From a virus: DNA of 25,009 nucleotides. Under the pieces are notes generated by a model that saw nothing but the letters and a program-made list of their open reading frames with translations, was not told the DNA's origin and did no database searches. The position numbers and the translations under genes were made by a program. Location of the stretch: IMG/VR virus record IMGVR_UViG_3300034631_000027, positions 1 to 25,009 of that record, one strand, 5' to 3'. This document shows, piece by piece, positions 6,434-23,719 of this stretch; positions within the stretch are counted from its first letter, which is position 1, and the number at the start of each line of letters is the position of its first letter.

Positions 6434-6450
6434 TGGCGGAGAGGAAGGGA
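6434..6450. repeat. Left attachment-site core
   Basis: TGGCGGAGAGGAAGGGA is identical to the tRNA-Ser 3' end at 23703-23719. The flanks differ (TAA before, AACGCC after), as expected for the left hybrid site. The low-GC sequence to its left is therefore what followed the tRNA before integration. Confidence 0.88.
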
Positions 6451-6483
6451 AACGCCAGCAACAAACAAAATCAATGACTTAGC

Positions 6484-6534
6484 AGGTGTTTTCACCTCTA
6501 TTTTGTCACCTTTTGTGAGGTGCTTTTTGTCACC
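6484..6534. promoter_or_regulatory. Left-end arm-type repeats
   Basis: TTTTGTCACC occurs at 6501-6510 and 6525-6534 (24-bp period), preceded by an AGGTG/CACCT dyad at 6484-6497. The same decamer occurs twice at the integrase end of the element. Two copies inside each end of a tyrosine-integrase element fit arm-type integrase binding sites. The rest of the 6263-6569 gap holds only the att core and no gene that I can support. A run of eight C lies at 6533-6540. Confidence 0.6.
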
Positions 6535-6569
6535 CCCCCCAGCCGTTCCTTTATGTGCTTCGCTCCAGA

Positions 6570-7067
6570 TCAGAACGGCAGCACGCCGAAGACACTGAAA
6601 GGGAGCGAGATCAATAGCAGCTTGAACGCCAGGCCGCGCAGATCTCTCGGCTCCGATGTAGTGACGAAATTAGCGATAGCTGCATCAATCTCACTTCCAT
6701 TGAGCTCCACTTGATCAATGTCATAGAAGCCATCAGCGTCCACGATCTCTCGAGGCGGTAGATTCCACCTCACCCGCGCGGCTTTGTTCATGTGGTTCTG
6801 TTGACGGGCCAAAGCGCGAAGGCCGGCCAGGCGGCCCTCGCTCAACGCAAAGTCCCACCATCGCGGATTGCCAGCCATCTTCGCTGCGATTCGATCGCGC
6901 TTCACCTGAGCCTGGTGGGCTTGCTCCAGTGAGCGGCCAGTCTGGAATTTGAACAATCCTCGCACGGCCCTACTGAGCGGCTCGATCCACGGCAGGCCGA
7001 CTATTACAGTGGCCACAAATTGCAACAGCAAGGCGACGATCGATGAAACTGCCTGTAGAACATCCAT
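6570..7067 (-). CDS. Hypothetical membrane protein next to the left att site
   Basis: 165 aa. A hydrophobic N-terminal segment (VSSIVALLLQFVATVIVGLP, about 7-26) and a hydrophobic C-terminal end (LAFKLLLISLPFSVFGVLPF) flank a charged central region. This predicts two membrane helices with a soluble middle domain. No family is recognised. It lies downstream of a terminator that separates it from the other minus-strand genes, so it probably has its own promoter in the 50 bp upstream. Cargo in this position of integrated phages is often lysogenic-conversion or exclusion material (inference only). No strong Shine-Dalgarno precedes the ATG. Confidence 0.6.
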   Translation of the reverse strand: MDVLQAVSSIVALLLQFVATVIVGLPWIEPLSRAVRGLFKFQTGRSLEQAHQAQVKRDRIAAKMAGNPRWWDFALSEGRLAGLRALARQQNHMNKAARVRWNLPPREIVDADGFYDIDQVELNGSEIDAAIANFVTTSEPRDLRGLAFKLLLISLPFSVFGVLPF

Positions 7068-7116
7068 GATGTCTTAGCGAATCTTCCAGCTGATGAGGCT
7101 GCGCTTAGTATCATAT

Positions 7117-7146
7117 AAAAAATCCAAGCCGGTTAGGGCTTGGATT
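7117..7146 (-). terminator. Rho-independent terminator
   Basis: AATCCAAGCC (7121-7130) and GGCTTGGATT (7137-7146) form a perfect 10-bp stem with a 6-nt loop. On the minus strand the stem is followed by a run of six U residues (complement of 7117-7122). It would end transcription of the small genes at 7188-7874 before the membrane protein gene at 7067. Confidence 0.85.
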
Positions 7147-7187
7147 AGCTTAGTCACTGCTTTGCACAGTTGTCGTTTGAATTTAGC

Positions 7188-7388
7188 TCAGTCTTGGTCG
7201 CTGAGATCCTCGGCGATCCAACGGTCGAGGATATTGCCAGCAACGAATGAGTTGGTGGCGTCGCTTTCACTAGCTTGAGCCTCCTGCACACGGTCGCCGT
7301 AACGAACCACGATCATCCTGCCTTCACGGTGCCAAGTCGCCTCGACGCGGCCAAACTTGGTATGTCTCTCGACCGTGTGCTGCATCAT
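7188..7388 (-). CDS. Small hypothetical protein, 66 aa
   Basis: Starts within the stop of the preceding gene (4-bp ATGA overlap, 7385-7388), indicating translational coupling, and ends about 40 bp before a strong terminator. The sequence has a beta-rich core (FGRVEATWHREGRMIVVRYGD) and an acidic C-terminal end. No family is recognised. It was probably co-expressed with the 64-aa gene upstream, and the pair may act together. Confidence 0.6.
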   Translation of the reverse strand: MMQHTVERHTKFGRVEATWHREGRMIVVRYGDRVQEAQASESDATNSFVAGNILDRWIAEDLSDQD

Positions 7389-7579
7389 TCAGCCCCTACG
7401 CTGAGTTGATCGAGCAGGCGGGCGAGCTCGCGCAGCGAGGCAGCGGCGAGCTGCGGATCTTCGAGCTCGGCCAGGAGCTCGGCTGCGTTACTCGCGACAA
7501 GCGCGACGCGCTGGTCTGAGAGGCTGTCGATCGCGCTGTCGATTTGATCCTCGAGCGGTGCTGGCGTGGTGTTGGTCAT
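7385..7579 (-). CDS. Small acidic helical protein, 64 aa
   Basis: The ATG is preceded by AAGGGAG at a good distance. The product is acidic and helical, with leucine/alanine-rich heptad-like spacing (AAELLAELEDPQLAAASLRELARLLDQL, about 33-60) that predicts a helical hairpin or coiled coil. It is coupled by a 4-bp overlap to the next small gene. No family is recognised. Confidence 0.6.
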   Translation of the reverse strand: MTNTTPAPLEDQIDSAIDSLSDQRVALVASNAAELLAELEDPQLAAASLRELARLLDQLSVGAE

Positions 7580-7664
7580 GGTGGTGTCTCCCTTGGCGCC
7601 GGGGGTGGCGTAACTCGCCTATAGCGCCGGGTGATAGGCAATCTGCGCGGCCGCAAAATAAATT

Positions 7665-7874
7665 TCAGGCCGCCTCTAAAAGGCCCGTCTCGATCGTCGC
7701 CCGATGTTCCTCGGACCAGACGTCGAGCAGGCCGAGGGCAAACTCGGCTTCCTCGATCCCCGGCTCGCCGGTGAGTGGGTTCCAACCCACTTGGAAGATC
7801 TCGACCAGCTTCGGGTCGGCCAGGATAAGGTTCACCAGGTGCCGGATTGCCCAAGGTGCAAGGAACGTAGTCAT
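7665..7874 (-). CDS. Small hypothetical protein, 69 aa
   Basis: Start placed at the ATG at 7874 (MTTFLAPWAIRHL). A TTG at 7889 would add five residues. The product is acidic and probably helical, with DPKLVEIFQVGWNPLTGEPG in the middle. No motif is recognised. It is first in the small minus-strand group that ends at the terminator near 7120. A GCCTAT/ATAGGC dyad (7617-7639) lies between it and the next gene. Confidence 0.5.
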   Translation of the reverse strand: MTTFLAPWAIRHLVNLILADPKLVEIFQVGWNPLTGEPGIEEAEFALGLLDVWSEEHRATIETGLLEAA

Positions 7875-8074
7875 GAGAGGATGCCCCAAATCAGCAGAGT
7901 TGATGCTTGGAGATTCGCCTACAATAGGAAGCGCGTCAAACAGTAATATAAAGAAGCCCTGTTAAAACAAAGGCTTACTAAGTCACTGCTTACTTACCAC
8001 TCAGCTCAGAGAGCCTAAAAAACTCTTTCGCTACCTGATCGCTCTGCTATGCTTCTTACAATCTGAGGGATGAT

Positions 8075-8527
8075 ATGCGCCTGACACTTGCCACCCTACT
8101 CTGCCTTATGCCCGTTGCCGCTAATGCGCAGGCGTTCGGGCTTCGTGCCGATATGTCGCTCAACGATCTACAGGTGATCGAGCAGAACACTGTAAACAGC
8201 TATTGGGTCGATGTTCCTCAGCCAAACGAGAATTTCGACCGCTACCTTGTCACAGCTACAAGTGCCGGTGTCTGCACCGTGATCGCGAGCAACATGAATG
8301 CGAGCTCGTTCATTGACCTAAAGCAAGTTCTCGATCCGGTGCTACGTCGAACCTACGGCGAGCCCACGCGTGAACACGAGAGCGCATCCTTGTGGGAAGG
8401 CTTGCAAGGCCCCGTAGAGGCAATCTTTCTTGCCGCCTACCCTGACGGCCTCCTCTTAAGTTATAGCTTCCCTGGCGCCGCAGAGTGCGCAGCTGCACGA
8501 AGCGTAGTCGATGCCACGGGCCTCTGA
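8075..8527 (+). CDS. Secreted hypothetical protein on the opposite strand to the phage genes
   Basis: 150 aa. The ATG is preceded by TGAGGGA. A clear signal peptide is present (MRLTLATLLCLMPVAANAQA, cleavage likely after ANA). The mature protein has two Cys (about residues 67 and 136) that could form one disulfide. No family is recognised. It is the only clear plus-strand gene in the element and is convergent with the Rep-like gene, with only 13 bp between the stops, so it has its own promoter. This fits a moron-type gene expressed from the integrated state (inference). Confidence 0.72.
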   Translation: MRLTLATLLCLMPVAANAQAFGLRADMSLNDLQVIEQNTVNSYWVDVPQPNENFDRYLVTATSAGVCTVIASNMNASSFIDLKQVLDPVLRRTYGEPTREHESASLWEGLQGPVEAIFLAAYPDGLLLSYSFPGAAECAAARSVVDATGL

Positions 8528-8540
8528 ATACGCGGCTGCC

Positions 8541-9620
8541 TCAAGCTGCACGCGCCAGCACAGTGCGAGGGCGAGCCAACCAGTCATCTTCGGCGAGCCG
8601 GTGTAGCTCGCGAGAAACGAACTGCACTTTACTAGTGCCGAGCAGCTCGACGGTGCGCTCGGTGGTCTTGCTGAAATACGAGATCCAACCCTCGGCGCTG
8701 TAGAGCTCTTTGATCGTCACCTGGCGCGATCCTGCCCTGCCCTTGATCTTGCCGCACGCGATCGCCAGGGCCGCCTTAAGGGCCTCGAGCTCGGCCGGTG
8801 TTCCCTGCTCGAGGCAAACGACGCCGTGAATGTGCAGTCGACCGGTGGGACTAAGTTCGAACTGAAAGGCGTAGCAAGGTTCATGGGCGGCCGTTCCTCC
8901 TAGCGCACGGTTGAGGTAGGTCGCCAGGAGCTTCACCGGATCGGCGCTTGCCCTGAGTGCCTTCTCGCGGGCCGGAGAGAGGTTGACCGTGATTGCCACG
9001 CCGTTCCTGGTCTGGCTCGAGCGAATGGCCTGGTCGAACTTGTCGGCGGCCGTGGATCTCGACCAGGTGGAGGATGGCGTGATGGTCGGCAGGGTGAAGG
9101 GCTTCTCAGGCCTGCCGAACAGATGCGCCAGGGGTGACGGTTGGCTGGCTCTTACGCGGTCTGCAAGGCTGGTGGTGAGAGAGGGTGAAGGGGTGTGGGT
9201 TGAGGGGGTGTAACCCCTTACTAGACAACCTCTAAGGTAGATCGCCGGAAAGGCCCGCGCAGCCTGGGCTTTTGCCAGATTTTCGTCGTTGGATTTTGTC
9301 GCAATTTTCGCACCTACCGAGGTGTCGATCGCGTCCGGAAACAGGGCGTCGAGGGCGGCCGCGAACTCATCGCCGGAGAGGTGATTGAGGTTCACGCATT
9401 GGGAATGGTCGGCGGGTGGCAAGGGTGCCGGTGTGGGTGTGGTGTCCAGGGCCTCGACCTCGGCCAGGAGGGCGGCCGTTTCGGGATCGAGCGGCGAGGG
9501 TGCGGGCGTAAGCAAGGTCGCCGCAGCAACGGGCGCACGGCGTGAAAGCAACCCGCAAATAAATGACCAGAAACGAACGGTCGCGAGCCTTAGCTCTTGC
9601 TTTTCGCGGGCGAAACTCAT
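8541..9620 (-). CDS. HUH-type rolling-circle replication initiator-like protein
   Basis: 359 aa. The C-terminal half carries the three motifs of HUH endonuclease Reps in order: a hydrophobic strand AITVNLS (209-215) as motif 1, GRLHIHGVV with H263-x-H265 (HUH metal site) as motif 2, and WISYFSK with Y315 and K318 (YxxK nucleophile region) as motif 3. The N-terminal 180 residues are Pro/Ala/Thr-rich and not recognised. HUH Reps nick one strand at an origin and start rolling-circle replication. I see no helicase domain, so a host helicase would be needed. A perfect hairpin lies 45-68 bp upstream of the start and could be an origin. Relaxase or transposase HUH enzymes are alternatives. Family membership rests on motifs only. 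Confidence 0.72.
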   Translation of the reverse strand: MSFAREKQELRLATVRFWSFICGLLSRRAPVAAATLLTPAPSPLDPETAALLAEVEALDTTPTPAPLPPADHSQCVNLNHLSGDEFAAALDALFPDAIDTSVGAKIATKSNDENLAKAQAARAFPAIYLRGCLVRGYTPSTHTPSPSLTTSLADRVRASQPSPLAHLFGRPEKPFTLPTITPSSTWSRSTAADKFDQAIRSSQTRNGVAITVNLSPAREKALRASADPVKLLATYLNRALGGTAAHEPCYAFQFELSPTGRLHIHGVVCLEQGTPAELEALKAALAIACGKIKGRAGSRQVTIKELYSAEGWISYFSKTTERTVELLGTSKVQFVSRELHRLAEDDWLARPRTVLARAA

Positions 9621-9693: not shown

Positions 9694-9708
9694 CGTTGCT
9701 GCGCACTG

Positions 9709-10158
9709 TTATAGCGAAAACGCGGCGTCGATCTGGCCGGTGATGATGCGGCTTAGGTCGCGGGCTAGGTCGTGCGACATAGGCTTAGGCGGTGCGTCCA
9801 TCGGAATACTGAGGTGAATACCGGCGCCGCGACGGATCACTTTGAAATCCGCGTCGAGGTTGAGCACGCCGGAATCTTTCGGCGACCGAGGCACGGCCAG
9901 GTGATCGGCGAGCTCGGCGGCCGTCTCGGTTGTGAATGGAACGGCGTCGCCGTCGCCAATACGGATAATGATGCGGTCGCGGTCGGTTGCCTTGACTTCA
10001 AAGCCGGGGATGGTGTCGGAGATGGTGCCGCGCTCGATCTCGGTATTGATCAGGTGAGCGATGATCTCGCTAACGGTCTGGAGGTTGTGAGCCGCGCCGA
10101 TTGCCTTGAGCTGAGTAAGGCGTTCCGGCGCGACCATCAGGGTTGCAGAGTTACGCAT
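9709..10158 (-). CDS. Ribbon-helix-helix-like DNA-binding protein, 149 aa
   Basis: The N-terminal 45 residues have the RHH pattern. A short strand (ATLMV) is followed by helix 1 (ERLTQLKAIGAAHN), a turn, and helix 2 (TVSEIIAHLINTEIERG), as in CopG/Arc/MetJ-type regulators. The remaining about 100 residues are predicted mixed alpha/beta and are not recognised. AGGA lies about 9 nt before the ATG. A perfect 16-bp inverted repeat sits 14-65 bp upstream, a natural operator for a dimeric or tetrameric RHH repressor. It lies between the tape measure and Rep genes. In the absence of a CI-type repressor it is the best candidate regulator of the element. Assignment is by pattern only. Confidence 0.6.
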   Translation of the reverse strand: MRNSATLMVAPERLTQLKAIGAAHNLQTVSEIIAHLINTEIERGTISDTIPGFEVKATDRDRIIIRIGDGDAVPFTTETAAELADHLAVPRSPKDSGVLNLDADFKVIRRGAGIHLSIPMDAPPKPMSHDLARDLSRIITGQIDAAFSL

Positions 10159-10171: not shown

Positions 10172-10223
10172 TTAATGTAGTAGCAATAATATCAGGTCGC
10201 CCCGCTCATTGCTACTACATTAA
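10172..10223. promoter_or_regulatory. Perfect 16-bp inverted repeat, candidate operator
   Basis: TTAATGTAGTAGCAAT (10172-10187) and ATTGCTACTACATTAA (10208-10223) are exact inverse copies with a 20-bp spacer. They fill the gap between the tape measure stop and the RHH-like gene. There is no U-tract, so it is not a standard terminator. The arm extended outward, CTTTAATGTAGTAGCA, recurs with one mismatch at the tail tube gene start (18645-18660). Confidence 0.7.
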
Positions 10224-10226: not shown

Positions 10227-12524
10227 TTAGGTGCCCATGCCTCGGTTGTTCAGGCTGTTCCCAGGCCGGCGCTGTCGCATGATCTCGCTCTGCACCAGGC
10301 CGCGAATAGAGCCCTCGACCTGCTTAGCGATGTTCTCGCCGAGGGCCTGGTCGGCCTGCTCGCCTCGAGATCCTCCCTCGACCTTGATTGAGATCGTGGG
10401 TGCGATCGTCACGGCGCCGGATCTTGAGGCCTGTGCAATGGATTTGCTGCCAACCATGCCGCCATCGGCGAAGCGGCCGACCTGGCCGGAGTTGATGGCC
10501 TCAAGTAAGGCGCGGTTCTTGGCGGTAGCGGCCGAATTAATTACGAACTCGCCCTGGGACAGCATTGCAGGCACGGAATCCGAGCGAGCCGTGCCAGTGC
10601 CTCGGACAGGGCCGCCGCTCGCTAGGTGTTGCACCTCGCCGCCGTTGGACAGGCCGAGGATGCTGAGCAAGCCGCCACCAGTGCCGCCGCCCATGAAGCT
10701 CGAGATCAGGGCGTTGATCGCCTGGTCGAGGGCCATGTCGATCAAGCGATCGGCCAGGCGACCAAAGGCGTTGCTAAGCGCCTCGACGGCGCTCGAGCCG
10801 TTACGGAGGTCGCCAATGATGCCGCCGAGGAAATCCTTGGCAATACCTTTCGCGTTCTCCTGGGCCTGCTCGAGCCGCTCCATAGCAGCGGTCTGGCTGT
10901 CGATCTCTGTAACCAGGTTACGGATAGAATCTTTCTGCTGATCTGTCGCATTGGCACCTGCACGCCGGAGCTCGGCGTCGATACGACGCTCGACCTCGCT
11001 AGCGCCAATCAAGTCGAGCTCGCGTTGCAGTTCGGTGATCAGCTCGACAATAGCGTCGCGCTCTTGAGTAGCGCTGCCGGCTCGGCCGCCGCCACCACTT
11101 CCACCGGAGCCGGAGCCGGAGCCGGAGCCTGCACCTGGTGCGATCGGGTAGTCGCTCAAGGTGATCGGCTTGACGGGTGTCGCCGGTTTGAACGTGCCGG
11201 AGAACTCGGACCAGGTAGCGCCCTCGCCGATCGCGTCCGTGTTAGATGCCGCCGCATGTGCTGCCCTGGCGGCGTCGCGTAGGGCGATGAAGTGACTAAC
11301 GACGCCGGAGATCGAAGCCTGCAAATTGGCAAAGTCGGGGTTCGCCTGGCCGAGCGCCTCGATCGCCGCGGCTGCACTTTCCGCGGTTCCCTTACCCTTG
11401 AGGATCTGCTCAATGAGATCCTGAAACGCGGCGTCGACCTCGCCGAACTGGCCGCGCGTGTTGGTCGCCAGGTTGGCGACGGCCTGCTCGGCCTGGGCAA
11501 GCTCGAGCTCGGCGTCGGTTACGGAGTCGCCGAGGGTGTCGAATTTGGCGGCCAGGCCCTCGATCAGGCCGATGATGCGTTGAATGTCGGCCATGTCCTT
11601 TGCGAACGTCTCGCCGATCGCGTCGCCGAGATCGTTGAGGGCGTTATCGAAGGCCGGCGAGTTGACCAGGTTGGTGATCGAGGTGCCGAGATTGTCGAGC
11701 ATCTGCGCAAAGCGCTGCCCTGCACCGGATGTCGAGTTGAACTTGCCGGCAGTGTCGATCAATACATTCTGCAGCCGAACGAAACTGCTCGAGATCGTCG
11801 TTTCGGACGTGGCAACCTTGTCGCGCAGCGTGACCGATCCGGCCTCAAAGGCGCGGAAGAAAGCCTCGCTGCTGATCTTGCCGTCGACGACAAGCTGCCG
11901 GAGCTTGGCGACCGAGCCGCCTGCCTCATCTAGGCCGGCGGCAACAGCCTGGGCGATCGGCTGGGCGCCTTCCATGATCGAGTTAAATTCTTCAGCGCGA
12001 ACAATTCCGCCGCCCATAGCCTGGCCGAGCTGCATCAGGGCGCCGCTTGCCGCGCCTGCATCGGTGCCGGCGACGCGGAGCGCCAGGCTCACGCTGTCGG
12101 TAAAGCCGAGCAGTTCCTCGGTTGAGGCGCCGAGCTCGCCTTGCACCAGGGCAATACGGCCATAGAGCTCGACCAGGGACTCGAGCGGTGCGGCGTTACG
12201 CTGTGCGGAGTCGAACAGGCTCTTGTAAACCTTCTCGAGATCCTGGCCGGCCAGGCCGGCGACCTTGAGCGAATTGGTGATGCGGGTCGAGCTGTCGATT
12301 AGCTGCTGAGCCGCGCGGAGTGAAAGGCCACTTGCAAGGCCCGCGACCAGGCCGGCGCCCATGCGACCGAAACCGGCCTCAATCCGGCTAGTCGCCAGCT
12401 TGACGCGCTTTTCGATGCGGCCGAGATCACGGTCGGACGTGCGGGCCGCGCGGGCAAAGTTCTTCTCAAAGTCGCGAATACGCGCCTCGAGCTGAATAAG
12501 CAGTTTTTCGGATTCGATCGCCAT
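10227..12524 (-). CDS. Phage tail tape measure protein
   Basis: 765 aa. The N-terminal 60 residues are a charged helix, followed by the tape-measure N-terminal domain (about 60-260: AAQQLIDSSTRITNSLKVAG, then SALMQLGQAMGGGIVRAEEFNSIMEGAQ), typical of siphovirus proteins. Long helical stretches and a Gly/Ser linker (about 465-480) follow. The C-terminal end has the LASGGPVRGTGTARSDSVPAMLS-type segment common in tape measure proteins. It sets tail length; by the usual rule of about 0.15 nm per residue it would give a tail near 115 nm. It is the last gene of the structural block. In lambda-like phages it is followed by tail-tip genes, which are absent here. Confidence 0.93.
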   Translation of the reverse strand: MAIESEKLLIQLEARIRDFEKNFARAARTSDRDLGRIEKRVKLATSRIEAGFGRMGAGLVAGLASGLSLRAAQQLIDSSTRITNSLKVAGLAGQDLEKVYKSLFDSAQRNAAPLESLVELYGRIALVQGELGASTEELLGFTDSVSLALRVAGTDAGAASGALMQLGQAMGGGIVRAEEFNSIMEGAQPIAQAVAAGLDEAGGSVAKLRQLVVDGKISSEAFFRAFEAGSVTLRDKVATSETTISSSFVRLQNVLIDTAGKFNSTSGAGQRFAQMLDNLGTSITNLVNSPAFDNALNDLGDAIGETFAKDMADIQRIIGLIEGLAAKFDTLGDSVTDAELELAQAEQAVANLATNTRGQFGEVDAAFQDLIEQILKGKGTAESAAAAIEALGQANPDFANLQASISGVVSHFIALRDAARAAHAAASNTDAIGEGATWSEFSGTFKPATPVKPITLSDYPIAPGAGSGSGSGSGGSGGGGRAGSATQERDAIVELITELQRELDLIGASEVERRIDAELRRAGANATDQQKDSIRNLVTEIDSQTAAMERLEQAQENAKGIAKDFLGGIIGDLRNGSSAVEALSNAFGRLADRLIDMALDQAINALISSFMGGGTGGGLLSILGLSNGGEVQHLASGGPVRGTGTARSDSVPAMLSQGEFVINSAATAKNRALLEAINSGQVGRFADGGMVGSKSIAQASRSGAVTIAPTISIKVEGGSRGEQADQALGENIAKQVEGSIRGLVQSEIMRQRRPGNSLNNRGMGT
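11104..11129. repeat. CCGGAG hexanucleotide repeat in the tape measure gene
   Basis: Four tandem CCGGAG units plus two bases encode a Gly-Ser alternation on the minus strand. Copy number can change in frame and would alter a flexible linker, slightly changing the length of the tape measure. Confidence 0.65.
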
Positions 12525-16795: not shown

Positions 16796-16920
16796 CGGAG
16801 CACTTTGGCGCGATCCTCGCCGTGCCTAGCCGCGATGATCGCAAAGGCGCGTTCACGTGCTGCACGGCAGTCGGCTTCAAACTCCAGGCGGTCGATCTCG
16901 CGAGCTTCTTCCGGCGTCAT
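16543..16920 (-). CDS. Small helical protein; frame continues as a shadow of the 90-aa gene
   Basis: The ATG at 16920 overlaps the stop of the upstream tail gene (ATGA). The first 44 residues (TPEEAREIDRLEFEADCRAA, then AFAIIAARHGEDRAKVLRWI) look genuinely coding and helical. After about 16795 the frame becomes Ser/Pro/Arg-rich, with poor third-position GC, and overlaps the well-formed 90-aa frame. So the real product is either this full 125-aa frame or a fusion into the 90-aa frame. Function unknown. Confidence 0.45.
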   Translation of the reverse strand: MTPEEAREIDRLEFEADCRAARERAFAIIAARHGEDRAKVLRWIERTRPRTARPSLPKPSRHRRPSPSDSAMSIGVSPEPSTAKAAPCANGPTISVSRSTFCTSECTSSAHSRPRSPKAPASVHP

Positions 16921-17273
16921 GATACGGCCGCTCCGAAGTTCTGCCGGAGCGTTGCTGTAAGGCTGTAGAGCTGAGCCGGAAGGGTTTGGGTGCTCCATTC
17001 TGAGCAGGTCCATAGCTTGGAGCTGTCGCCTGGTAGAGCGTAGTGGAACGGCTTGGTGCCGGCCTGGCCTTCGAGGAAAGCGAGGATCTCGTTCCTATCG
17101 TCGAGCTCGAGGATTTCCCATTTTAGTTCGATGTTCTGGCGGATGTGGTTCAGGCCGTCAGGTGTGGCCTGGCTGTAGCCGTCGCCGAACTCGGCGCGGA
17201 GCACTTTGATCTCTGGCTTGGCGGACGTGCCAGGCGACGGGGCAATCGGTGGGTGAAACGTGAGGGTGCTCAA
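16917..17273 (-). CDS. Minor tail protein, lambda gpM-like
   Basis: 118 aa. KPEIKVLRAEFGDGYSQATPDG, then a predicted strand with LKWEILELDDRNEILAFLE, then KPFHYALPGD, match the Phage_min_tail family (PF05939; lambda gpM). That family works at the tail tip-tube junction. It overlaps the HNH gene by 4 bp at its start and the next small gene by 4 bp at its end. In lambda M follows the tape measure; here it is far upstream of it, with the head-tail and terminase genes in between. Confidence 0.85.
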   Translation of the reverse strand: MSTLTFHPPIAPSPGTSAKPEIKVLRAEFGDGYSQATPDGLNHIRQNIELKWEILELDDRNEILAFLEGQAGTKPFHYALPGDSSKLWTCSEWSTQTLPAQLYSLTATLRQNFGAAVS

Positions 17274-17608
17274 TGTGCTGCCCTTTCCTGGGCCTGCTTA
17301 TGGGAGTTGTGGCAGTGCGCGCAGAGCGCTTGAAAATTTGCGGGGTTAAAAAACAAGGCGCGGTTGCCGCGATGCGGCTGGATATGATCGACGACTGTTG
17401 CGGGCGCGGTGCAGCCAGGCCAGGAACAGCGGGGATTGGCCGCCAAGAACTCGGCGCGAATTTTGCGCCAGGCGCGGTCATAGCCACGGTCATGGGCATT
17501 CGGCCGGCGACGGTCGGCCTCGGCGCGGCGTTGCGCCTGGCAAGCGCAGCGGGTGCCATAGGCGACCACTTTACCGCATGAGCAGATGCGAGGGGCACGC
17601 ATTGGCAT
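17270..17608 (-). CDS. HNH endonuclease
   Basis: 112 aa. The core has DHIQPH (Asp74-His75), Asn91 in NPANFQALC, and His100 in AHCHNSHK, giving the ordered D-H, N, H pattern. Two CxxC-type pairs (C61/C66 and C96/C99) probably bind zinc; a further Cys group lies at 9-23. Family: HNH (PF01844), single-strand or double-strand nuclease. In HK97-type phages such proteins work with the terminase in genome packaging, which is likely here. It starts directly at the stop of the tail chaperone gene (TAAATG). Confidence 0.92.
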   Translation of the reverse strand: MPMRAPRICSCGKVVAYGTRCACQAQRRAEADRRRPNAHDRGYDRAWRKIRAEFLAANPRCSWPGCTAPATVVDHIQPHRGNRALFFNPANFQALCAHCHNSHKQAQERAAH

Positions 17609-18181
17609 TTACGCGGCCCTCTTGGCGCCGAGCCCGCGCATCAGGCCGCGCACCTTGTCGGCGAGGTTCTTGGGCTTGTCTGGTGCCGGTGCCTGGTCGT
17701 CGCCGCCATAGATGGCCTTGAGCATTTCCAAGCGCCCCTTATGGGCGGCGATGATCTCGGCCGGCGTGGCGTGCCAGGCGGTGTCAGGTGTCCAGCCGAG
17801 CCAACCGGTAGCGATACCGAAGAGGCGGGCGTGATATTCGTCGAAAGCGATCGGCTCGGCCTGGTCGGCCGGTTCCTCGATCTTTGTTTCGTCAAAGCCG
17901 GCGAGGGCGAGCACGAATTGCACCAGGGGATTGCTGATCTGCTCAAGGGTCGAGCCTAAGCCGGCCTGGTCGACATGCGCGGCCAGGTCGAAAGCTGTGC
18001 CGGGTGATCCTTCGCGGATTAGCTCGGCGATAATGCCGAGATGCCCGTCGAGGATGCCGCGCAAGAGAGGTGCGAACGATCCATGCCGGCGAGCCAGGTG
18101 GGTTGCGGCCCGCAGCGACGGGCGCAACTCGATCTCGAGCCTATTGGCTTTGATCGTGATGGCGGTTGCTGCGAGCTGCAT
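17609..18181 (-). CDS. Tail assembly chaperone-like protein
   Basis: 190 aa from the ATG at 18181. The N-terminal half (LRPSLRAATHLARRHGSFAP, then LRGILDGHLGIIAELIR) resembles GTA gp10-type tail chaperones. The second half contains YHARLFGIATGWLGWTPDTAW and ATPAE, resembling the Phage_TAC_6 type next to tail tube genes. The two-part form is like the lambda G and GT pair in one chain. It would keep the tape measure soluble for tube assembly. It sits immediately after the tail tube gene, the normal place. Family assignment is by remembered pattern. Confidence 0.65.
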   Translation of the reverse strand: MQLAATAITIKANRLEIELRPSLRAATHLARRHGSFAPLLRGILDGHLGIIAELIREGSPGTAFDLAAHVDQAGLGSTLEQISNPLVQFVLALAGFDETKIEEPADQAEPIAFDEYHARLFGIATGWLGWTPDTAWHATPAEIIAAHKGRLEMLKAIYGGDDQAPAPDKPKNLADKVRGLMRGLGAKRAA

Positions 18182-18185
18182 GGTT

Positions 18186-18665
18186 TTAGGCCACTGCCTC
18201 GGCCGGTGCGACCTCGAGCGGTTCGCTGTCAATCTCGAGATTGAACGCCTGTTTAACGACGTCGTTTGCCGTGCCGAGCTGCACGCGGCCGCTCATTACC
18301 AGGGCGGCGAAATAGAAAGTGGATGGAGTGCCGGCGTCCGGTGCGTCGTCGAGGGCGATTTTGAAACCGTAGGTGTCGCGGGTCTTGGTCGCGGCGCGGA
18401 GAGCGATTTGACCAGGGTCGGCGGCGTCACGGCCGACCACGAGCTCGATTGCACCGGCGTTGCTGGTGCCCTTGAGTTTACGGACGCGCGAATCCTCGAG
18501 GGTGGTAAAGGTGATTACCTCGGCCTCGTCGCCGAACTCGCCGAGATCCTCGATCCCCTTAACCTCGACGTAGCTGGCGGCCTGGTAGGTCGCCAGGTCT
18601 GCCGAGCTTGCGATCGGGGTGCTCGAGATAAAGAGCTTAGTGCCTGCTGCTACATTAAAGGACAT
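18186..18665 (-). CDS. Major tail (tube) protein
   Basis: 159 aa. The sequence runs SFNVAAGTKLFISS, then YVEVKGIEDLGEFGDEAEVI and SRVRKLKGTSNAGAIELVVG, and ends with a region rich in predicted beta-strands. This is the pattern of siphovirus tail tube proteins of the HK97/GTA type. It starts 3 bp after the capsid stop. A 16-bp segment at its start matches the inverted repeat at 10208-10225 except for one base. Confidence 0.82.
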   Translation of the reverse strand: MSFNVAAGTKLFISSTPIASSADLATYQAASYVEVKGIEDLGEFGDEAEVITFTTLEDSRVRKLKGTSNAGAIELVVGRDAADPGQIALRAATKTRDTYGFKIALDDAPDAGTPSTFYFAALVMSGRVQLGTANDVVKQAFNLEIDSEPLEVAPAEAVA

Positions 18666-18668
18666 GAC

Positions 18669-19823
18669 TTAGACCGCCTTTACCGAAAGGAACTTGAGGG
18701 CCTCGGCCTTGCTCACGGCGCCACCAACACGGCGGCGAGCGTGGAAGCGCACCTGGCCGGTCGTCTGGATGCTGTAGGGGTCGCGAAGGATCGAGACGGC
18801 GGTGCGGTCGAAGATCCGGAAGCCCTGATGGAAGTCACCGAAGGCAACGGGGATCTCGCCGGCAGCGGCGTCGGGCATGTCGGGGAACTCAACCACTGGC
18901 CGGCCGAGGATGGTGCCAGGATTACCGGCGACCAGGCTCGGTTGCCAGATATAGTCACCGGCGCCGTCCTTGAGCTTGCGGACCTTGCCGATGGTCTTGC
19001 GGTTCATCGCCCAAGTGCCATTGGCCGCATAGAAAGCCGGCAGCATGTGGAACAGGTCGATCAGGTCGTCGGCGGCGATTTCCAGGCCGGCAGTCTCGAG
19101 ATCCTCGATATCGGTGTTGAGCAGCATACCAACGGGCTTGCTGGTGCCGTCGCCATTGATCCAGGCAGCGGACTCGATACGGCCGAACTCCTCGCCGAAG
19201 TCGTGAGCAAGTTCGCCCTCGACGTTGAACGCGGAATCCTCGAGCAAGCGGTTGGAAACGTCGACGTAGCAGGCGATTTCGTGCATCACAAAGGTCTGCT
19301 GGCCGTAGCTCGGCTGCGTGCCGGTGCGGGCGGTCGTCTCGCCGACCCAAGCGCCGGTCAGGGTGCCGGTGCGCTTCGGGAGAAGGATCTCACCGGTCGA
19401 TGCGGGTGCGACGCGGGCGACCGAACGAACGGGCGAATACTGGACAAGGTTCTTGTCGAGCTCGGTCAAGAACGCGTCGGGGACCAGATAGCCGCCAGCC
19501 GAGTCGGTCGAGACGGTCAGCGCCTTGATTTCCTCGGCGGCCATCCGCTCCACGCCAGTGCGGGCGAAAGAAACAAAGGCCTTCTGCTCCAGATCGGTCG
19601 AGGGTGCGGCGTCACCGGCGACGGGCCGGTTAAGTGCAGCCTGCATTGCGTCGAGGCGAGCATTGACGGCGCCGAGGTCGACATTAGCCGACTTCGTTTC
19701 GATCGCTGCAATGCGGTCATCGACCGTTTTGGTCAGATCGGCCAGGGCCTTCGTGACCAGGTCGACCGGCTCGGCGTCTTTGAGCTCGAAAGCGCCAGGG
19801 GTAGCGTGGGGATTAAAAGTCAA
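18669..19823 (-). CDS. HK97-type major capsid protein
   Basis: 384 aa. Residues 1-75 are an alpha-helical delta domain that acts as scaffold. DLEQKAFVSFARTGVERM probably marks the start of the mature protein. Conserved segments SAGGYLVPDAFLTEL, then AWVGETTARTGTQPSYGQ and DGTSKPVGML, are diagnostic of the Phage_capsid family (PF05065). It overlaps the protease gene by 4 bp. I did not identify the Lys-Asn crosslink residues of HK97, so chemical crosslinking is not claimed. Confidence 0.97.
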   Translation of the reverse strand: MTFNPHATPGAFELKDAEPVDLVTKALADLTKTVDDRIAAIETKSANVDLGAVNARLDAMQAALNRPVAGDAAPSTDLEQKAFVSFARTGVERMAAEEIKALTVSTDSAGGYLVPDAFLTELDKNLVQYSPVRSVARVAPASTGEILLPKRTGTLTGAWVGETTARTGTQPSYGQQTFVMHEIACYVDVSNRLLEDSAFNVEGELAHDFGEEFGRIESAAWINGDGTSKPVGMLLNTDIEDLETAGLEIAADDLIDLFHMLPAFYAANGTWAMNRKTIGKVRKLKDGAGDYIWQPSLVAGNPGTILGRPVVEFPDMPDAAAGEIPVAFGDFHQGFRIFDRTAVSILRDPYSIQTTGQVRFHARRRVGGAVSKAEALKFLSVKAV

Positions 19824-20353
19824 TTCAGGGTTCCTTTTGGGGTTTGGAGCGCCGAGGTGGCGCGGTTGATAGCCTCGGCGATCGCGAGTGCGGCCGTTGC
19901 ATCCTTCGCCGAGACGATGCGGGCACCGGGGTGTGCGGGCACGGTTACGAGCGAAATTTCGTGAAGGTTGAGGGATCGGATCTCACGGCCGCCGCCGATG
20001 CGGGGCTTTGCGTCTTTCGTGACGAAACCGATGGATATGCCGGTGATCGCGCGGGCCTTTACCAGGGCGTGAACCTCGCGGGCCTTTTCAACGTCATTGA
20101 TCAAGAGCCGGCCGCGAACCTCGAGGCCGTGCATGGTTTCTTTGATTTCGTGCCAGACGCCGACCGGCTGGTGAGGGTCATGGGCGAACAGCATCGGCAG
20201 TGTTTCGGGTGTCCGGAACGCGCCTTTGGTGATGAGGTCGCCGTAACGGTCGGCCGAGCCGAACGGCCAGGCGATGCCGGTGATCTCGCCAGCCTCGGTC
20301 ACGGCTAGGTCAGCTTTGATCTCGAGCGTCTTGTCGGTCTTGGTGTCGGTCAT
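19820..20353 (-). CDS. HK97 prohead protease
   Basis: 177 aa from the ATG at 20353, overlapping the upstream stop by 4 bp. GEITGIAWPFGSADRYGD opens the fold. Catalytic His58 lies in MLFAHDP and Ser107 in ITGISIGF, the expected order for family S78 (PF04586), with NLHEISLVTVPAHPGA following. It cuts off the capsid delta domain during maturation. The longer frame upstream of 20353 is an Arg-rich shadow. Confidence 0.95.
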   Translation of the reverse strand: MTDTKTDKTLEIKADLAVTEAGEITGIAWPFGSADRYGDLITKGAFRTPETLPMLFAHDPHQPVGVWHEIKETMHGLEVRGRLLINDVEKAREVHALVKARAITGISIGFVTKDAKPRIGGGREIRSLNLHEISLVTVPAHPGARIVSAKDATAALAIAEAINRATSALQTPKGTLN

Positions 20354-20658
20354 TCGGTGGGTTCCTCGCCGGTGCCGGCATAGAAAAGCTCGAGCACGGC
20401 GACGGCCAGGGCGTGACCGTGAACTAGGCTCGGAGTGGTGGTGTAGGTCTCGGCGAGGGCCTTGGCCTTTTCCGGCTCGGCGCCGCCGCCAATAAGTGCG
20501 AGGCGGATCGTCTCGCTGATCTCGGCAAGGTGGAACTGGCCGGAGAATACCTTGCGGCATAGGGCGCCGATGCCGGTGCCGGTCGTGCGCTCGAGCTCGA
20601 GCACCATGGCTGATGTCAGCTTGAACTCATATTCAGCGTCGCCGAAGAACTTGTTCAC
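20350..20658 (-). CDS. GTA gp10-like tail chaperone (small)
   Basis: 102 aa. FFGDAEYEFKLTSAMVLELERTTGTGIGAL and the helix HLAEISETIRLALIGGG fit the gene-transfer-agent family protein (Phage_TAC_11/GTA-gp10, PF11836). It overlaps portal and protease by 4 bp on each side. Its position between portal and protease is unusual, since this family normally sits near the tail tube gene. The element thus appears to hold two chaperone-like genes. Confidence 0.7.
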   Translation of the reverse strand: MNKFFGDAEYEFKLTSAMVLELERTTGTGIGALCRKVFSGQFHLAEISETIRLALIGGGAEPEKAKALAETYTTTPSLVHGHALAVAVLELFYAGTGEEPTE

Positions 20659-21866
20659 GCGGCGCCCTCCTGGCTCGTTTTGCCGGAGGTATAAGGCGAG
20701 TGCAGATCCTCGCCGTCAGTGCGGGCCGGAAGGTTGAGGCCCGAACGGACCTCATTGGCCGTAATGGCGCCCATCGAACGATAGGCCTGGTAAGCGGTCG
20801 CGCGGGCGGCGAACTCAACGGCGAGCAGGTCGTCGACAACGAACTCGATTAGAAGCTCGGCGCGTTCCGTGTCTGAGAGTAGCACGCGGGAGTAAGCCCA
20901 CGTCCATGCGCTAAGCCAACCCCGCAGCGTGTGACTGAGGAATTGCTGAGCCTGTTGCTCGGTGTTCGCGAGGGTTCCGTGAGAAAGCTCCCCTAGCATT
21001 GTCGCGGGGATGGAAAAGGCTCGAGCGATTTCCTCGATCTGGAGCCGGCGAGATTCGATGAACTGAGCGTCGACGCTGGAAAACTGGAGGGCCTGAAACT
21101 GGCCGCCATCTTCAAGAACAGCGGTCTTGCCGGACTGCTCGCCGGCATGGGCGCCGTGCCAGGAGGCCGAGACGCGCTTTGCAACGTCGTCGCCGAGCTT
21201 GTTGGGAAACGTTAGCACGCCGGAAGGGCGGCCGCCGCGACTAAACAAGCGAGCGGCGTGCTGCTCATAGGTGAGGGCGAGGCCGATCGCCTCGCGAGCC
21301 AGGAAGATCGGCGAGGTTCCAGTGAGGCCGTCGAGGCTGAAAGCCGGGACGTGGAGCACGTCGCGGAACGATAGGGTGCGGCGATCGCGGCCGGTTCCGG
21401 TAATGTAAACAGGTTCGCCGGTTGAGGTGATCCTCACCTCGACGCCGGTCGGGTCGAGCCGGATCAGCTCGAGCACTTGGCCGTTGACGCGGTTCGCAAA
21501 GGCGTAGCCGTTGCCGTAAAGCAGGGCGTCAGCCGTGAGTTGCTGGCGCAAGCCCTCGGAGCTCGTCCAGGGGTTCGCCTCGCCGTGGAGGATCTTATGG
21601 GCGGCGTGATCGGTGGCGGGGATCTTGCCGCCCTTGCCGTCGCGCTTGAACAGCTTGACCGGCAGGGTTCCGACCGACTTGGAGATCAATTGCACTGCGC
21701 AGGCGACGGGCGTCGAGCGCATTGCGGTTTGCGGCGTAACCGACGGGCCGGCGATCGAGGGCGCGGCGAAGATCAGTTCAGCGCCCCATTCCATGGGCGC
21801 AACGGCGCTCTTTTGCTCTGGGGCCGCTAGACGATCGAGGAAGCGCCCGATGATGTTCTGTTGCAA
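20655..21866 (-). CDS. HK97-type portal protein
   Basis: 403 aa from a TTG at 21866; the first ATG in frame is about residue 25 and would be the alternative start. Diagnostic segments are ACAVQLISKSVGTLPVKLFK, then DALLYGNGYAFANR, DPTGVEVRI and LEEIARAFSIPATMLGE-like residues (QIEEIARAFSIPATMLGELS). Family: Phage_portal (PF04860). It forms the ring through which DNA passes and on which the head is built. It is the first gene of the structural block, with a promoter-operator candidate just upstream. Confidence 0.96.
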   Translation of the reverse strand: MQQNIIGRFLDRLAAPEQKSAVAPMEWGAELIFAAPSIAGPSVTPQTAMRSTPVACAVQLISKSVGTLPVKLFKRDGKGGKIPATDHAAHKILHGEANPWTSSEGLRQQLTADALLYGNGYAFANRVNGQVLELIRLDPTGVEVRITSTGEPVYITGTGRDRRTLSFRDVLHVPAFSLDGLTGTSPIFLAREAIGLALTYEQHAARLFSRGGRPSGVLTFPNKLGDDVAKRVSASWHGAHAGEQSGKTAVLEDGGQFQALQFSSVDAQFIESRRLQIEEIARAFSIPATMLGELSHGTLANTEQQAQQFLSHTLRGWLSAWTWAYSRVLLSDTERAELLIEFVVDDLLAVEFAARATAYQAYRSMGAITANEVRSGLNLPARTDGEDLHSPYTSGKTSQEGAA

Positions 21867-21877
21867 GTCGGCTGCCG

Positions 21878-21930
21878 TCTGTTCTGATATAACGTAACGA
21901 CAGTATACCGAACTGAGAACAGAAAGTGAA
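21878..21930 (-). promoter_or_regulatory. Promoter with overlapping inverted repeat before the structural block
   Basis: On the minus strand TTCACT (21930-21925) and TATACT (21907-21902) are 17 bp apart, a fair sigma70-type pair. A perfect 8-bp inverted repeat, TCTGTTCT (21878-21885) and AGAACAGA (21916-21923), puts one arm in the -35/-10 spacer and the other near the start point. A further TGTTCTG lies at 21854-21860. This is the layout of a repressible promoter. The regulator is unknown. Confidence 0.5.
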
Positions 21931-21991
21931 TCCTGCTTTTGTGTCTTTGTGCTAGAAAGTCAGCCTGTTGCGCCGATTTGTGGCCGGCGAG

Positions 21992-23611
21992 CTAGAACTT
22001 GAACTCTACTCGATTGAGGCCGTCACGCATGGCCTCGATCATCGTCACATTAGCCTCGCCGATGTAGATGCCGCCGACTGACTGGTCTTTGTGTCCGGTG
22101 ATCAGATCGGACACGTCGCGGTTGACGCCGTGCCGTGCCAGGGCGGTCTTGAGGGTGTGCCGGAAGCTGTGAAACACCTTGCGAGAGTCGAGAATGCCGA
22201 CCTCGGTCTTATACGTCCGGAGAAACCAGCGGTTGATCTTATCCTCGGGCTCCCAATCCCAAAACAGCTTGGTCTTACCTTGCCGCTTGAGCTGGTCGAC
22301 GTAGTCAAGAAAGCCGCGCTCGAGCAAAGCCTGGTGGATTGGCACCAGGCGTTTCGAGTGGACGTTCTTGGTCGCCTCGACCAGGTCGAACACCCAAACA
22401 CCTTGCTCCTGGTAGATGTCGCCGATCTTGATGCGACGGATCTCGCTGGAGGATCGTGCACCGGTGTAGAGGGCGATCAGAAGTGCCCATTGCCGCGACT
22501 CGTATTTGCTTGGATCTGCGAACAGCGGCGTCCTAAAAAGGCGCTGGAGGTCGTCGCCGGTAAAGCCGACGCGGCTCGGCGCTTCAAAGCTCTTGCCCTT
22601 GTCGATCTTGATACCCCGCGCGGGGTTCTGGTCGACATAGCCGTTCTTGGTCGCCCATCCCAAGATCGTGCTGATATGGGAAAGCCACTTTTCGTTGATG
22701 GTATTGGCGTTGAGGGTCGGGAAGGGCTTGGCGAGTTTCTTGTTGGCCTCGATCGCCTTGGGCAGGATCATGCCGGGAAAGCGCAGCGCGTAGTTGCTCG
22801 GCGTCTCGATCAACGCGTTTTTGTAATTCCGCATATCGGCGACGGCGATTGCTCGAGCGGCAATCCCCTGCCCCAAGAACTCCTGCAACATGCGAACAGC
22901 GACCTTGTGCTCGGCCATGGTCTTTTCCGATAGGCTTCGGCCGCCTGCCGTGCGTTCCCGGTGAAAGAGCGCCAGCACTTCCTCGATCGTCTCGCCGGAT
23001 GCTTTTGTTGCCGCACGCGCTGGAACAGCAGCATCGGGCGCCGGCGCCTCGGGCTGCAACAGCGGGCTTGCTGGTGTCGAGATTGCGATCTTACCGGCGT
23101 CGCGTTCTTCCTGCCTGGTCAGGGCCTCGAGCTGAGCTTCGGCCATCGCTCTTAGCAGTTCGGCCCGATCGAGGTTCGGATCGGCGGCACCGGCGGCGAG
23201 CGCGGCGTTAGCGGCATAACCCATCAGCGCTTCGCATTCCTCGCTCGAGAGCTGCTTCGCGAGCATCAGCCGGAGCAGCATGGCCCGATGCGGCGACGAC
23301 CAGCGGCGCAAGTCTAGGGTTCCACCGTTGGCCCGCTCGCGATCGTCAGCGGCGAGCTCGGCTTCGTAGTGATGCCTGGCCGCCGTCCGCAGGGTCGGCG
23401 CGGCCGCTTGGGTCTTGGCCTTGGCTTCATCAATTTGTCGATAGAAGCGAGCGACCACGGCCGGAGCGTTACGTTCGGCGACCTTTCGATCGCTGCCGAG
23501 CCATTCGCGCAGCTCGCGAGCGCCTACCGTTGCGCGGAGTGCCTCGGGCACGACGACGCGGACAGCAAAACGGCTGTTGATCTCATGCAGGTGCTTGATG
23601 CGCTTTGCCAT
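21992..23611 (-). CDS. Tyrosine integrase
   Basis: 539 aa. The N-terminal region (1-70) resembles the DUF6538-type leader of alphaproteobacterial integrases. A long helical region follows, then a SAM-like core-binding domain (about 205-330), then the catalytic domain with Arg386 in YTGARSSSEIR, His481/Arg484 in FHSFRHT, His507 in TGHKDQ and Tyr516 in GGIYIGE. It integrates the element into the tRNA-Ser gene whose 3' end is about 90 bp away. Two TTTTGTCACC repeats lie 5-26 bp upstream of the ATG, so bound integrase could repress its own gene. No strong Shine-Dalgarno is visible. No excisionase was found. Confidence 0.96.
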   Translation of the reverse strand: MAKRIKHLHEINSRFAVRVVVPEALRATVGARELREWLGSDRKVAERNAPAVVARFYRQIDEAKAKTQAAAPTLRTAARHHYEAELAADDRERANGGTLDLRRWSSPHRAMLLRLMLAKQLSSEECEALMGYAANAALAAGAADPNLDRAELLRAMAEAQLEALTRQEERDAGKIAISTPASPLLQPEAPAPDAAVPARAATKASGETIEEVLALFHRERTAGGRSLSEKTMAEHKVAVRMLQEFLGQGIAARAIAVADMRNYKNALIETPSNYALRFPGMILPKAIEANKKLAKPFPTLNANTINEKWLSHISTILGWATKNGYVDQNPARGIKIDKGKSFEAPSRVGFTGDDLQRLFRTPLFADPSKYESRQWALLIALYTGARSSSEIRRIKIGDIYQEQGVWVFDLVEATKNVHSKRLVPIHQALLERGFLDYVDQLKRQGKTKLFWDWEPEDKINRWFLRTYKTEVGILDSRKVFHSFRHTLKTALARHGVNRDVSDLITGHKDQSVGGIYIGEANVTMIEAMRDGLNRVEFKF

Positions 23612-23615
23612 GTGA

Positions 23616-23637
23616 TTTTGTCACCAGTTTTGTCACC
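23616..23637. promoter_or_regulatory. Right-end arm-type repeats
   Basis: TTTTGTCACC at 23616-23625 and 23628-23637 (12-bp period), followed by a degenerate TTTGTGACT. Same decamer and orientation as at 6501 and 6525 inside the left end. Likely integrase arm sites, placed over the integrase leader. Confidence 0.65.
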
Positions 23638-23650
23638 TGGTTTGTGACTG

Positions 23651-23676
23651 AAAGCCCCGGAATGCAAGGGCTTTTT
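23651..23676 (+). terminator. Hairpin with T-tract between integrase and tRNA
   Basis: AAAGCCC (23651-23657) and GGGCTTT (23668-23674) form a 7-bp stem with a T-run on the plus strand. On the minus strand it ends in only three T, so it would at best be a weak terminator for the tRNA transcript. Confidence 0.5.
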
Positions 23677-23702
23677 GGCGTATCAATGGCTTAGGAAGGT
23701 GG

Positions 23703-23719
23703 TGGCGGAGAGGAAGGGA
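23703..23719. repeat. Right attachment-site core in the tRNA 3' end
   Basis: TGGCGGAGAGGAAGGGA, identical to 6434-6450. It is the complement of the last 17 nt of the tRNA-Ser including CCA, so integration leaves the tRNA intact. Confidence 0.9.

What the first reader, a model, noticed from the sequence alone, without database searches (positions are those of the whole stretch)
6434..23719. A 17-kb element that builds heads and part of a tail but lacks tail tip, lysis and CI-type repressor genes
The element holds portal, protease, capsid, connectors, both terminase subunits, HNH, tail tube, chaperones and tape measure, all apparently intact. I see no tail hub, fibre, holin, endolysin, excisionase or primase. 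Known capsid-forming phage-inducible islands encode their own heads and packaging and borrow helper tails; this one also has its own tube and tape measure and an HUH Rep. Either it is a new kind of alphaproteobacterial satellite or a strongly reduced prophage. Intact frames with 4-bp couplings argue against random decay.
Basis: partly seen in the sequence, partly recalled or inferred. Interest (0 to 1): 0.75.

Follow-up and report, generated by a model that had tools for sequence, protein, structure and literature searches.

The report
Satellite phage lacking its tail tip
This 17.3-kb DNA element belongs to a widespread family of virus-like parasites in Alphaproteobacteria that appear to build their own head and tail shaft but must borrow the tail tip and the cell-bursting genes from another phage, a division of labour between satellite and helper that I could not find described.

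Summary
A 17,269-bp element lies between 17-bp repeats (6434-6450 and 23703-23719, the tRNA-Ser 3' end). It carries head, packaging, connector, tail-tube, chaperone and tape-measure genes plus an HUH Rep. It has no hub, fibre, lysis, repressor or primase gene; one tip-associated gene, a lambda gpM homologue, is present.

It is not a decayed prophage. About 100 alphaproteobacterial relatives form one TerL clade. Twenty-eight att-bounded ones span 17.4 ± 0.6 kb; six more, checked in 35-60-kb windows, span 17.2-19.2 kb. One of these, at the same tRNA-Ser locus, is 17.9 kb. A circular Paracoccus plasmid relative is 17.5 kb. Structural genes are under purifying selection (dN/dS 0.15-0.29). Only four members, one nested clade, have tail-tip-like plus lysis genes.

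The tape-measure C-terminus of the window's subtype matches 115-122-kb Rhizobium phages; in the one read in full it is followed by lambda-type tip genes M-L-K-I-J. Satellites carry M or I at most, never L, K or J.

Best reading: a helper-dependent satellite that makes head, packaging machine and tail shaft and docks its tape measure onto a helper's tip. Helper dependence is inferred, not shown. Closest kind: capsid-forming PICIs, which borrow whole tails.

The parts
6434..6450 (.). att repeat, distal end of the element
   Evidence: 17-bp perfect copy of 23703-23719
23703..23719 (.). att repeat inside the 3' end of tRNA-Ser
23703..23792 (-). tRNA-Ser(GCT), integration target
   Evidence: ARAGORN; same tRNA-Ser/DUF2147/GST neighbourhood in relatives
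21992..23611 (-). tyrosine integrase
   Evidence: PF00589 2.6e-12, phrog_1 2.7e-32; 72.6% identical integrase at the same locus in a relative
20655..21866 (-). portal protein
   Evidence: PF04860 5.4e-91
20350..20658 (-). RcGTA-gp10-like tail assembly chaperone
   Evidence: tblastn with chaperones of alphaproteobacterial phages, 1.3e-13 and 7.6e-6; found in all 41 subtype-A loci (by definition of the subtype)
19820..20353 (-). prohead protease
   Evidence: PF04586 7.4e-22
18669..19823 (-). major capsid protein, HK97 fold family
   Evidence: PF05065 6.1e-82
18186..18665 (-). tail tube protein
   Evidence: PF08813 1e-7; HMM family in 17 of 41 subtype-A and 46 of 46 subtype-B loci
17609..18181 (-). 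tail assembly chaperone-like protein
   Evidence: PF09550 6.2e-5, phrog_7493 5.5e-32
17270..17608 (-). HNH endonuclease, packaging type
   Evidence: PF01844 2.3e-6, phrog_2323 2.9e-25
16917..17273 (-). lambda gpM-like minor tail protein (the only tip-associated gene)
   Evidence: PF05939 7.4e-19; 45% identical to minor tail protein M of Rhizobium phage RHph_X66
16523..16795 (-). small ORF with HTH-like repeat
   Evidence: ORF with coding score; function unknown
15964..16503 (-). repeated HTH protein (phrog_3377 without the HNH part)
   Evidence: phrog_3377 2.8e-36; in 27 of 41 subtype-A loci
15680..15967 (-). head-tail connector gp6-like
   Evidence: PF05135 1.2e-14
15264..15677 (-). HK97 gp10-like neck/tail component
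   Evidence: PF04883 1.2e-6
14857..15267 (-). tail terminator/completion gp17-like
   Evidence: PF11367 3.2e-20
14540..14857 (-). head completion protein
   Evidence: PF05521 5.9e-22
14169..14561 (-). terminase small subunit, P27-like (start uncertain)
   Evidence: same HMM family as the annotated P27 TerS of NZ_CP157016
12536..14230 (-). terminase large subunit (start uncertain)
   Evidence: PF20441 1.4e-44, PF03354 2.8e-18
10227..12524 (-). tape measure protein, 765 aa
   Evidence: PF20155 2.9e-51; N-terminal 300 aa 49-55% identical to alphaproteobacterial siphophage TMPs
10230..10379 (-). last 50 codons of the tape measure: proposed tip-docking end
   Evidence: z = 13 to the TMP end of RHph_X66, at most 1.2 to GTA-tip phages
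10172..10223 (.). perfect 16-bp inverted repeat with 20-nt loop: candidate Rep origin or terminator
   Evidence: fold z = -6.3
9709..10158 (-). conserved 149-aa protein before rep
   Evidence: family in 12 of 41 subtype-A loci; no Pfam or PHROG match
8541..9620 (-). HUH Rep (rolling-circle-type initiator)
   Evidence: invariant H263xH265 and Y315xxK318; HUH Rep fold matches over residues 204-346
6570..7874 (-). four small ORFs of unknown function (6570-7067, 7188-7388, 7385-7579, 7665-7874)
   Evidence: coding score; no Pfam, PHROG or PADLOC match noted
8075..8527 (+). 150-aa ORF with signal-peptide-like start
   Evidence: no family

Best explanation
An integrative phage satellite, one of a large alphaproteobacterial family. 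Shown from sequence: it integrates into the 3' end of a tRNA gene, encodes a complete small-genome head (portal, protease, capsid), terminase and HNH, neck, tail terminator, tail tube, two chaperones and a tape measure, and an HUH Rep; its kind keeps a size near 17.4 kb. Inferred: on infection by (or induction of) a helper phage it excises, Rep replicates it, and its own terminase packages it into its own head of about 17-19 kb capacity. It assembles its own tail shaft on its own tape measure, whose C-terminus docks on tip proteins supplied by the helper (lambda type L, K, I, J, with gpM encoded by the satellite). It leaves the cell by the helper's lysis.
For: Size near 17.4 kb at 13 or so kinds of tRNA gene and 17.9 kb at the same locus. 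Intact and selected structural genes. No lysis gene in any subtype-A element and L/K/J in none of about 137 loci. TMP C-terminus: 32 of 39 subtype-A ends match that of RHph_X66 (median z 20), 0 of 43 subtype-B. In 50,697 phage records the 51-aa end of one satellite hits only 10 Rhizobium phages of 115-122 kb; the one read in full has TMP-M-L-K-I-J. C-terminal 45 aa 46% identical on average among 31 members, against 30% N-terminal and 27% middle. No GTTCN7GTTC LexA box. Defence-type cargo. Circular 17,494-bp relative.
Against: No helper, particle or induction observed. 19 host genomes lacked lambda gpL, so a co-resident lambda-type prophage helper is not seen. 24 of 41 subtype-A members have no recognised tail tube gene, so the shaft may be borrowed in part. 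Four relatives carry tip-like and lysis genes, so self-sufficient members may exist. An unrecognised tip protein cannot be excluded, although the window has only about 3.6 kb outside named genes.
Confidence: 0.72

Rival explanations
1. A self-sufficient minimal siphophage whose tip and lysis proteins are too divergent to recognise.
For: It encodes most of a virion; four relatives (L032, L033, L036, L037) do carry tip-like proteins, phage lysozyme and probable holin/spanin.
Against: The four form one nested clade by TerL. Other members have only small ORFs after the tape measure. Tip hubs of comparable phages are long (megatron 1,155 aa, J about 2,065 aa) and no such ORF exists in the window. 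No lysozyme, holin or CI-type repressor found.
Confidence: 0.12
2. A recent deletion derivative (decaying prophage) of a 35-40-kb phage.
For: It lacks functions that an ordinary prophage has.
Against: Same size and same absences in relatives at many tRNA sites and at the same locus; dN/dS 0.15-0.29; nearest TerL in 50,697 phage records only about 37% identical.
Confidence: 0.03
3. A capsid-forming PICI in the strict sense that carries its own tape measure and tube to interfere with or re-measure the helper's tail, while still using an otherwise whole helper tail.
For: 24 of 41 subtype-A members have tape measure and chaperones but no recognised tube gene; tail-less, cf-PICI-like relatives lie inside the same TerL clade.
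Against: The window and all subtype-B members have a tube gene and a terminator gene, enough for a shaft of their own.
Confidence: 0.1
4. A domesticated gene-transfer agent or tailocin-like particle.
For: Tail chaperone and some other proteins resemble RcGTA-type tails.
Against: Own integrase, att repeats, Rep, and presence at many different tRNA genes; a plasmid form exists.
Confidence: 0.03

Closest known systems
Capsid-forming PICIs (cf-PICIs)
   Same: Integrase, own capsid, protease, portal, connectors, TerS, TerL and HNH; small genome; integration in the chromosome; defence cargo (definition as given in PMC10690885; PMC11389934).
   Different: cf-PICIs are described as depending on the helper for tails; here tube, terminator, chaperones and tape measure are self-encoded and only the tip and lysis are missing. 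HUH Rep in place of PICI primase-replicase; no AlpA found.
Mulch/Flayer satellites of Streptomyces phages (MulchRoom, MiniFlayer)
   Same: Satellite-encoded heads and packaging; virulent helpers; small capsids (PMC10690885).
   Different: No tail tube or tape measure reported in them; Actinomycetota hosts; no recognisable replicase in them.
RHEph10/RHph_N1_10/RHph_X66-type Rhizobium phages (115-122 kb)
   Same: TMP C-terminus and gpM.
   Different: Complete large phages; X66 has L, K, I and J. They are the proposed tip type, not relatives of the head module.
Mesorhizobium phage vB_MseS-P1, Labrenzia phage vB_LagS-V1
   Same: TMP N-terminal 300 aa 52-55% identical; chaperone type.
   Different: 39-41-kb complete phages with distal tail protein, hub, megatron and lysis; different TMP C-terminus.
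Rhodobacter capsulatus gene transfer agent
   Same: gp10-type tail chaperone.
   Different: No integrase, Rep or att repeats in GTAs (own knowledge); GTA encodes its own tail tip.

Membership tests
cf-PICI | own capsid, protease, portal, connectors, TerS, TerL, HNH | tested here: met
cf-PICI | depends on the helper for the whole tail (no tail shaft genes of its own) | tested here: not met
   tail tube, terminator, chaperones and TMP present and under purifying selection
cf-PICI / PICI | PICI-type primase-replicase and AlpA regulator | tested here: not met
   none in Pfam/PHROG scans of the window's genes; HUH Rep instead
cf-PICI | sequence kinship of the head module with described cf-PICIs | not tested
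   no cf-PICI sequence was at hand; the describing paper is not held
phage satellite in general | mobile, integrates by att repeats | tested here: met
phage satellite in general | lacks lysis and part of the virion genes | tested here: met
phage satellite in general | mobilised by a helper phage | not testable with these tools
   needs infection or induction
autonomous temperate phage | tail hub, receptor-binding and lysis genes, repressor | tested here: not met
   divergent unknowns cannot be excluded
gene transfer agent | no integrase, no excision or replication genes, fixed chromosomal locus | tested here: not met
   integrase, att repeats, Rep, many tRNA sites
HUH Rep | HUH motif, catalytic Tyr motif, HUH fold | tested here: met
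   HxH and YxxK invariant in 7 sequences; residues 194-347 match HUH Reps, Z 6-8; Pfam only below cut-off

The most novel reading that the evidence does not exclude
A pan-alphaproteobacterial class of satellites that build everything but the tail tip and choose their helper by the last 50 residues of their tape measure: one subtype keyed to lambda-type (M-L-K-I-J) tips of large Rhizobium-type phages, a second subtype keyed to other tips, in a TerL clade that runs from tail-less to tip- and lysis-bearing members.
Probability: 0.55. Interest if true: 0.87.

Novelty: new variant of a known kind. Interest (0 to 1): 0.78.

Why it matters
Known capsid-forming satellites borrow a whole tail. A satellite that makes its own shaft and borrows only the tip would show that helper choice can be reduced to one protein-protein contact, the tape-measure end against the tip complex. 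The family spans Hyphomicrobiales and Rhodobacterales, keeps a 17.4-kb size and holds a series of tail contents (none, tape measure only, shaft, shaft plus tip-like and lysis genes) in one clade, so it offers a natural test of how satellites and phages turn into each other. The predicted helper type can be tested with existing Rhizobium phage collections.

Tried and rejected
Deletion derivative: rejected by size conservation and the same-locus relative. The first size survey used loci cut at 10 kb on either side of TerL, which would hide longer elements; it was repeated in 35-60-kb windows and gave 17.2-19.2 kb (the Shinella, Gellertiella and Roseovarius windows showed no tRNA repeat). Clean empty site: not obtained; the tRNA-Ser locus of relatives is a hotspot with other inserts. 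Co-resident lambda-type helper: PF05100 (gpL) absent from 19 host genomes; the single extra gpM in Cypionkella showed no match to X66 L, K, I or J. GTA-type tip for the window: its TMP end does not match those phages, though its N-terminus does. Rep against phage records: no match; against plasmids: two weak ones. Model of f70 from the four tip-bearing relatives too poor to search (pLDDT 37). Literature: no paper on alphaproteobacterial satellites with tail genes in the held library; the cf-PICI description itself is not held, and most subscription papers and all preprints are missing, so the novelty claim is limited to that library. I first read phrog_32 in L046 as a fibre-assembly protein; one search shows it is gpI-like. 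Hairpin near rep: no common sequence among members, only similar geometry in three.
Full report
What is there. The window is a 25,009-bp IMG/VR record. On its minus strand, between a 17-bp perfect repeat at 6434-6450 and the 3' end of tRNA-Ser(GCT) at 23703-23719, lies an element of 17,269 bp. From the tRNA inwards it reads: integrase, portal, RcGTA-gp10-type chaperone, protease, capsid, tail tube, second chaperone, HNH, gpM-like protein, two HTH-like ORFs, connector, gp10, gp17 terminator, head completion protein, TerS, TerL, tape measure, a conserved 149-aa protein, HUH Rep and small ORFs. The one correction is that a tip-associated protein, gpM (PF05939, 7e-19), is present at 16917-17273.

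A family, not a remnant. A TerL search gave IMG/VR relatives of 15.8-17.6 kb with the same order. A wider search gave about 130 loci from Hyphomicrobiales, Rhodobacterales and neighbours. Gene clustering shows two layouts. Subtype A, that of the window (41 loci), has the gp10-type chaperone and, where present, Rep after the tape measure; its integrase usually stands beside the portal gene. Subtype B (46 loci) has another small gene (f13) after portal, a TAC_18 chaperone after the tape measure and mostly an integrase at the far end. Another 17 long loci have heads but no tape measure. In a quick TerL tree 98 alphaproteobacterial rows fall on one side of a branch with 100% SH-aLRT support against phages of other phyla; the tail-less state needs at least seven changes and the four tip- and lysis-bearing members form one nested clade. 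The nearest TerL among 50,697 phage records is about 37% identical.

Size. In 28 members with a tRNA-overlapping direct repeat the span is 17,435 bp on average (SD 625, range 15,766-18,842) at tRNAs for Ser, Gln, Lys, Arg, Pro, Cys, Val, Leu, Asn, Thr, Phe and others. Because those loci were cut at 10 kb from TerL, five more genomes were read over 40-60 kb: 17,203, 18,251, 19,207, 17,872 and 17,331 bp. At the window's own locus, recognised by the tRNA-Ser, DUF2147 and GST neighbours, one relative (G350) holds an element with a 72.6% identical integrase and an 18-bp repeat 17,943 bp apart, with gpM directly after the tape measure and no hub gene. A Paracoccus marcusii record described as a plasmid is a circular 17,494-bp subtype-A relative with Rep.

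Selection. Pairwise dN/dS medians are 0.15-0.29 for every head and tail family tested, including tail tube 0.23, terminator 0.21 and tape measure 0.15-0.22, the last from few pairs.

What is missing. Among 143 accessory proteins of 22 subtype-A elements the commonest Pfam and PHROG matches include no lysozyme, holin, hub or CI-type repressor; they include gpM (5), Arc-type regulators, and defence-like genes (AAA/OLD/PtuA, AIPR, Mrr). These scans list only the 25 commonest families. Direct searches with tip and lysis proteins of four alphaproteobacterial phages found: a distal tail protein in six to nine loci, nearly all subtype B; lysozyme in four (L032, L033, L036, L037); gpM in ten; gpI in three (L046, L049, L052); gpL, gpK, gpJ, GTA-type hub and megatron in none. 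L046 also has a 553-aa fibre-like protein.

The tape-measure end. Subtype-A tape measures differ in length (636-1167 aa) and sequence, but their last 45 residues are 46% identical on average in 31 of them, against 30% for the first 300 and 27% for the middle. A 51-aa end from a Roseovarius element, searched against 50,697 phage records, hits exactly ten, all Rhizobium phages of 115-122 kb, each at the tape-measure end, 63-67% identical. One of these, RHph_X66, has the gene order tape measure, M, L, K, I, J. With shuffles as control, 32 of 39 subtype-A ends match that of X66 (median z 20), none of 43 subtype-B ends do, and the window's own end scores z = 13 to X66 and at most 1.2 to four other phages. 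The window's tape-measure N-terminus instead resembles phages with GTA-type tips at 49-55%. So the protein looks like a shaft part of one descent with a tip-contact end of the other. That the end contacts the tip is established for siphophage tape measures in general (own knowledge); that it picks the helper is my inference.

Rep. Seven homologues share HxH and YxxK. The model is confident only over residues 190-350, where the best solved matches are mostly HUH Reps (SIRV1 ORF119 Z 8.1, geminivirus, nanovirus, parvovirus and pMV158 Reps Z about 6); Z values of this size alone would be weak, the motifs carry the claim. A perfect 16-bp hairpin lies upstream of the rep operon and hairpins of similar geometry occur in two relatives, a candidate origin.

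How it most likely works. Shown: gene content, boundaries, size, selection, the shared tape-measure end. Inferred: helper-triggered excision (no LexA box found), Rep-driven replication, packaging by its own terminase into its own head, assembly of its own shaft, completion by the helper's L, K, I and J, release by the helper's lysis, and integration into the tRNA of a new host. Weak points: no helper is known; host genomes tested lack gpL, which points to virulent rather than resident helpers; many subtype-A members lack a recognised tube gene.

Comparison. cf-PICIs make heads and take whole tails; Mulch/Flayer satellites make heads. No paper in the held library describes a satellite with its own shaft but no tip, or satellites of this family, but that library is partial. 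I therefore rate it a new variant of a known kind.

Noticed in passing
window 1-6433: A separate lower-GC island (50-55% against 56-65% in the element) beyond the distal att repeat, with a serine resolvase (2464-3057) and a NACHT plus pentapeptide-repeat protein (3050-6262) that looks like a defence gene; not syntenic with relatives.
   Followed up: partly
L032, L033, L036, L037: Four relatives of 18.9 kb (L032) carry a 270-aa F5/8-type-C protein, a 587-aa conserved protein, lysozyme and holin/spanin-like ORFs after the tape measure: possibly self-sufficient mini-phages inside the satellite clade.
   Followed up: partly
L165 (NZ_CP157016.1, 17,494 bp): Paracoccus marcusii 'plasmid unnamed5' is a circular member of this family with Rep and head genes and no integrase annotated.
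   Followed up: partly
L046:4056-6445, L052, L049, L054:4732-5178: Some subtype-A elements carry a fibre-like protein and/or a gpI homologue, as if they could alter the borrowed tip.
   Followed up: partly
L200-L202 (Shinella daejeonensis): A complete prophage with GTA-type hub, megatron and a likely lysis gene lies about 20 kb from a subtype-A element in the same contig; possible helper or mere neighbour.
   Followed up: partly
accessory genes of subtype-A elements (alignment A3): Cargo matches anti-phage defence models (PtuA, AriA, GajA/Old, AIPR, Mrr-type).
   Followed up: no
window 10172-10223; L047:14162-14210; L230+L234 19235-19296: Long perfect hairpins (14-20-bp arms, 20-22-nt loops) near the rep operon with no shared sequence; candidate replication origins or terminators.
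   Followed up: partly
24 subtype-A loci, e.g. L034, L035, L040: Tape measure, chaperones and terminator without a recognisable tail tube gene, most with protease fused to capsid.
   Followed up: partly
L226, L227, L228, L233 (relatives' tRNA-Ser loci): The tRNA-Ser(GCT) next to DUF2147/GST is an insertion hotspot with different content in each relative.
   Followed up: partly
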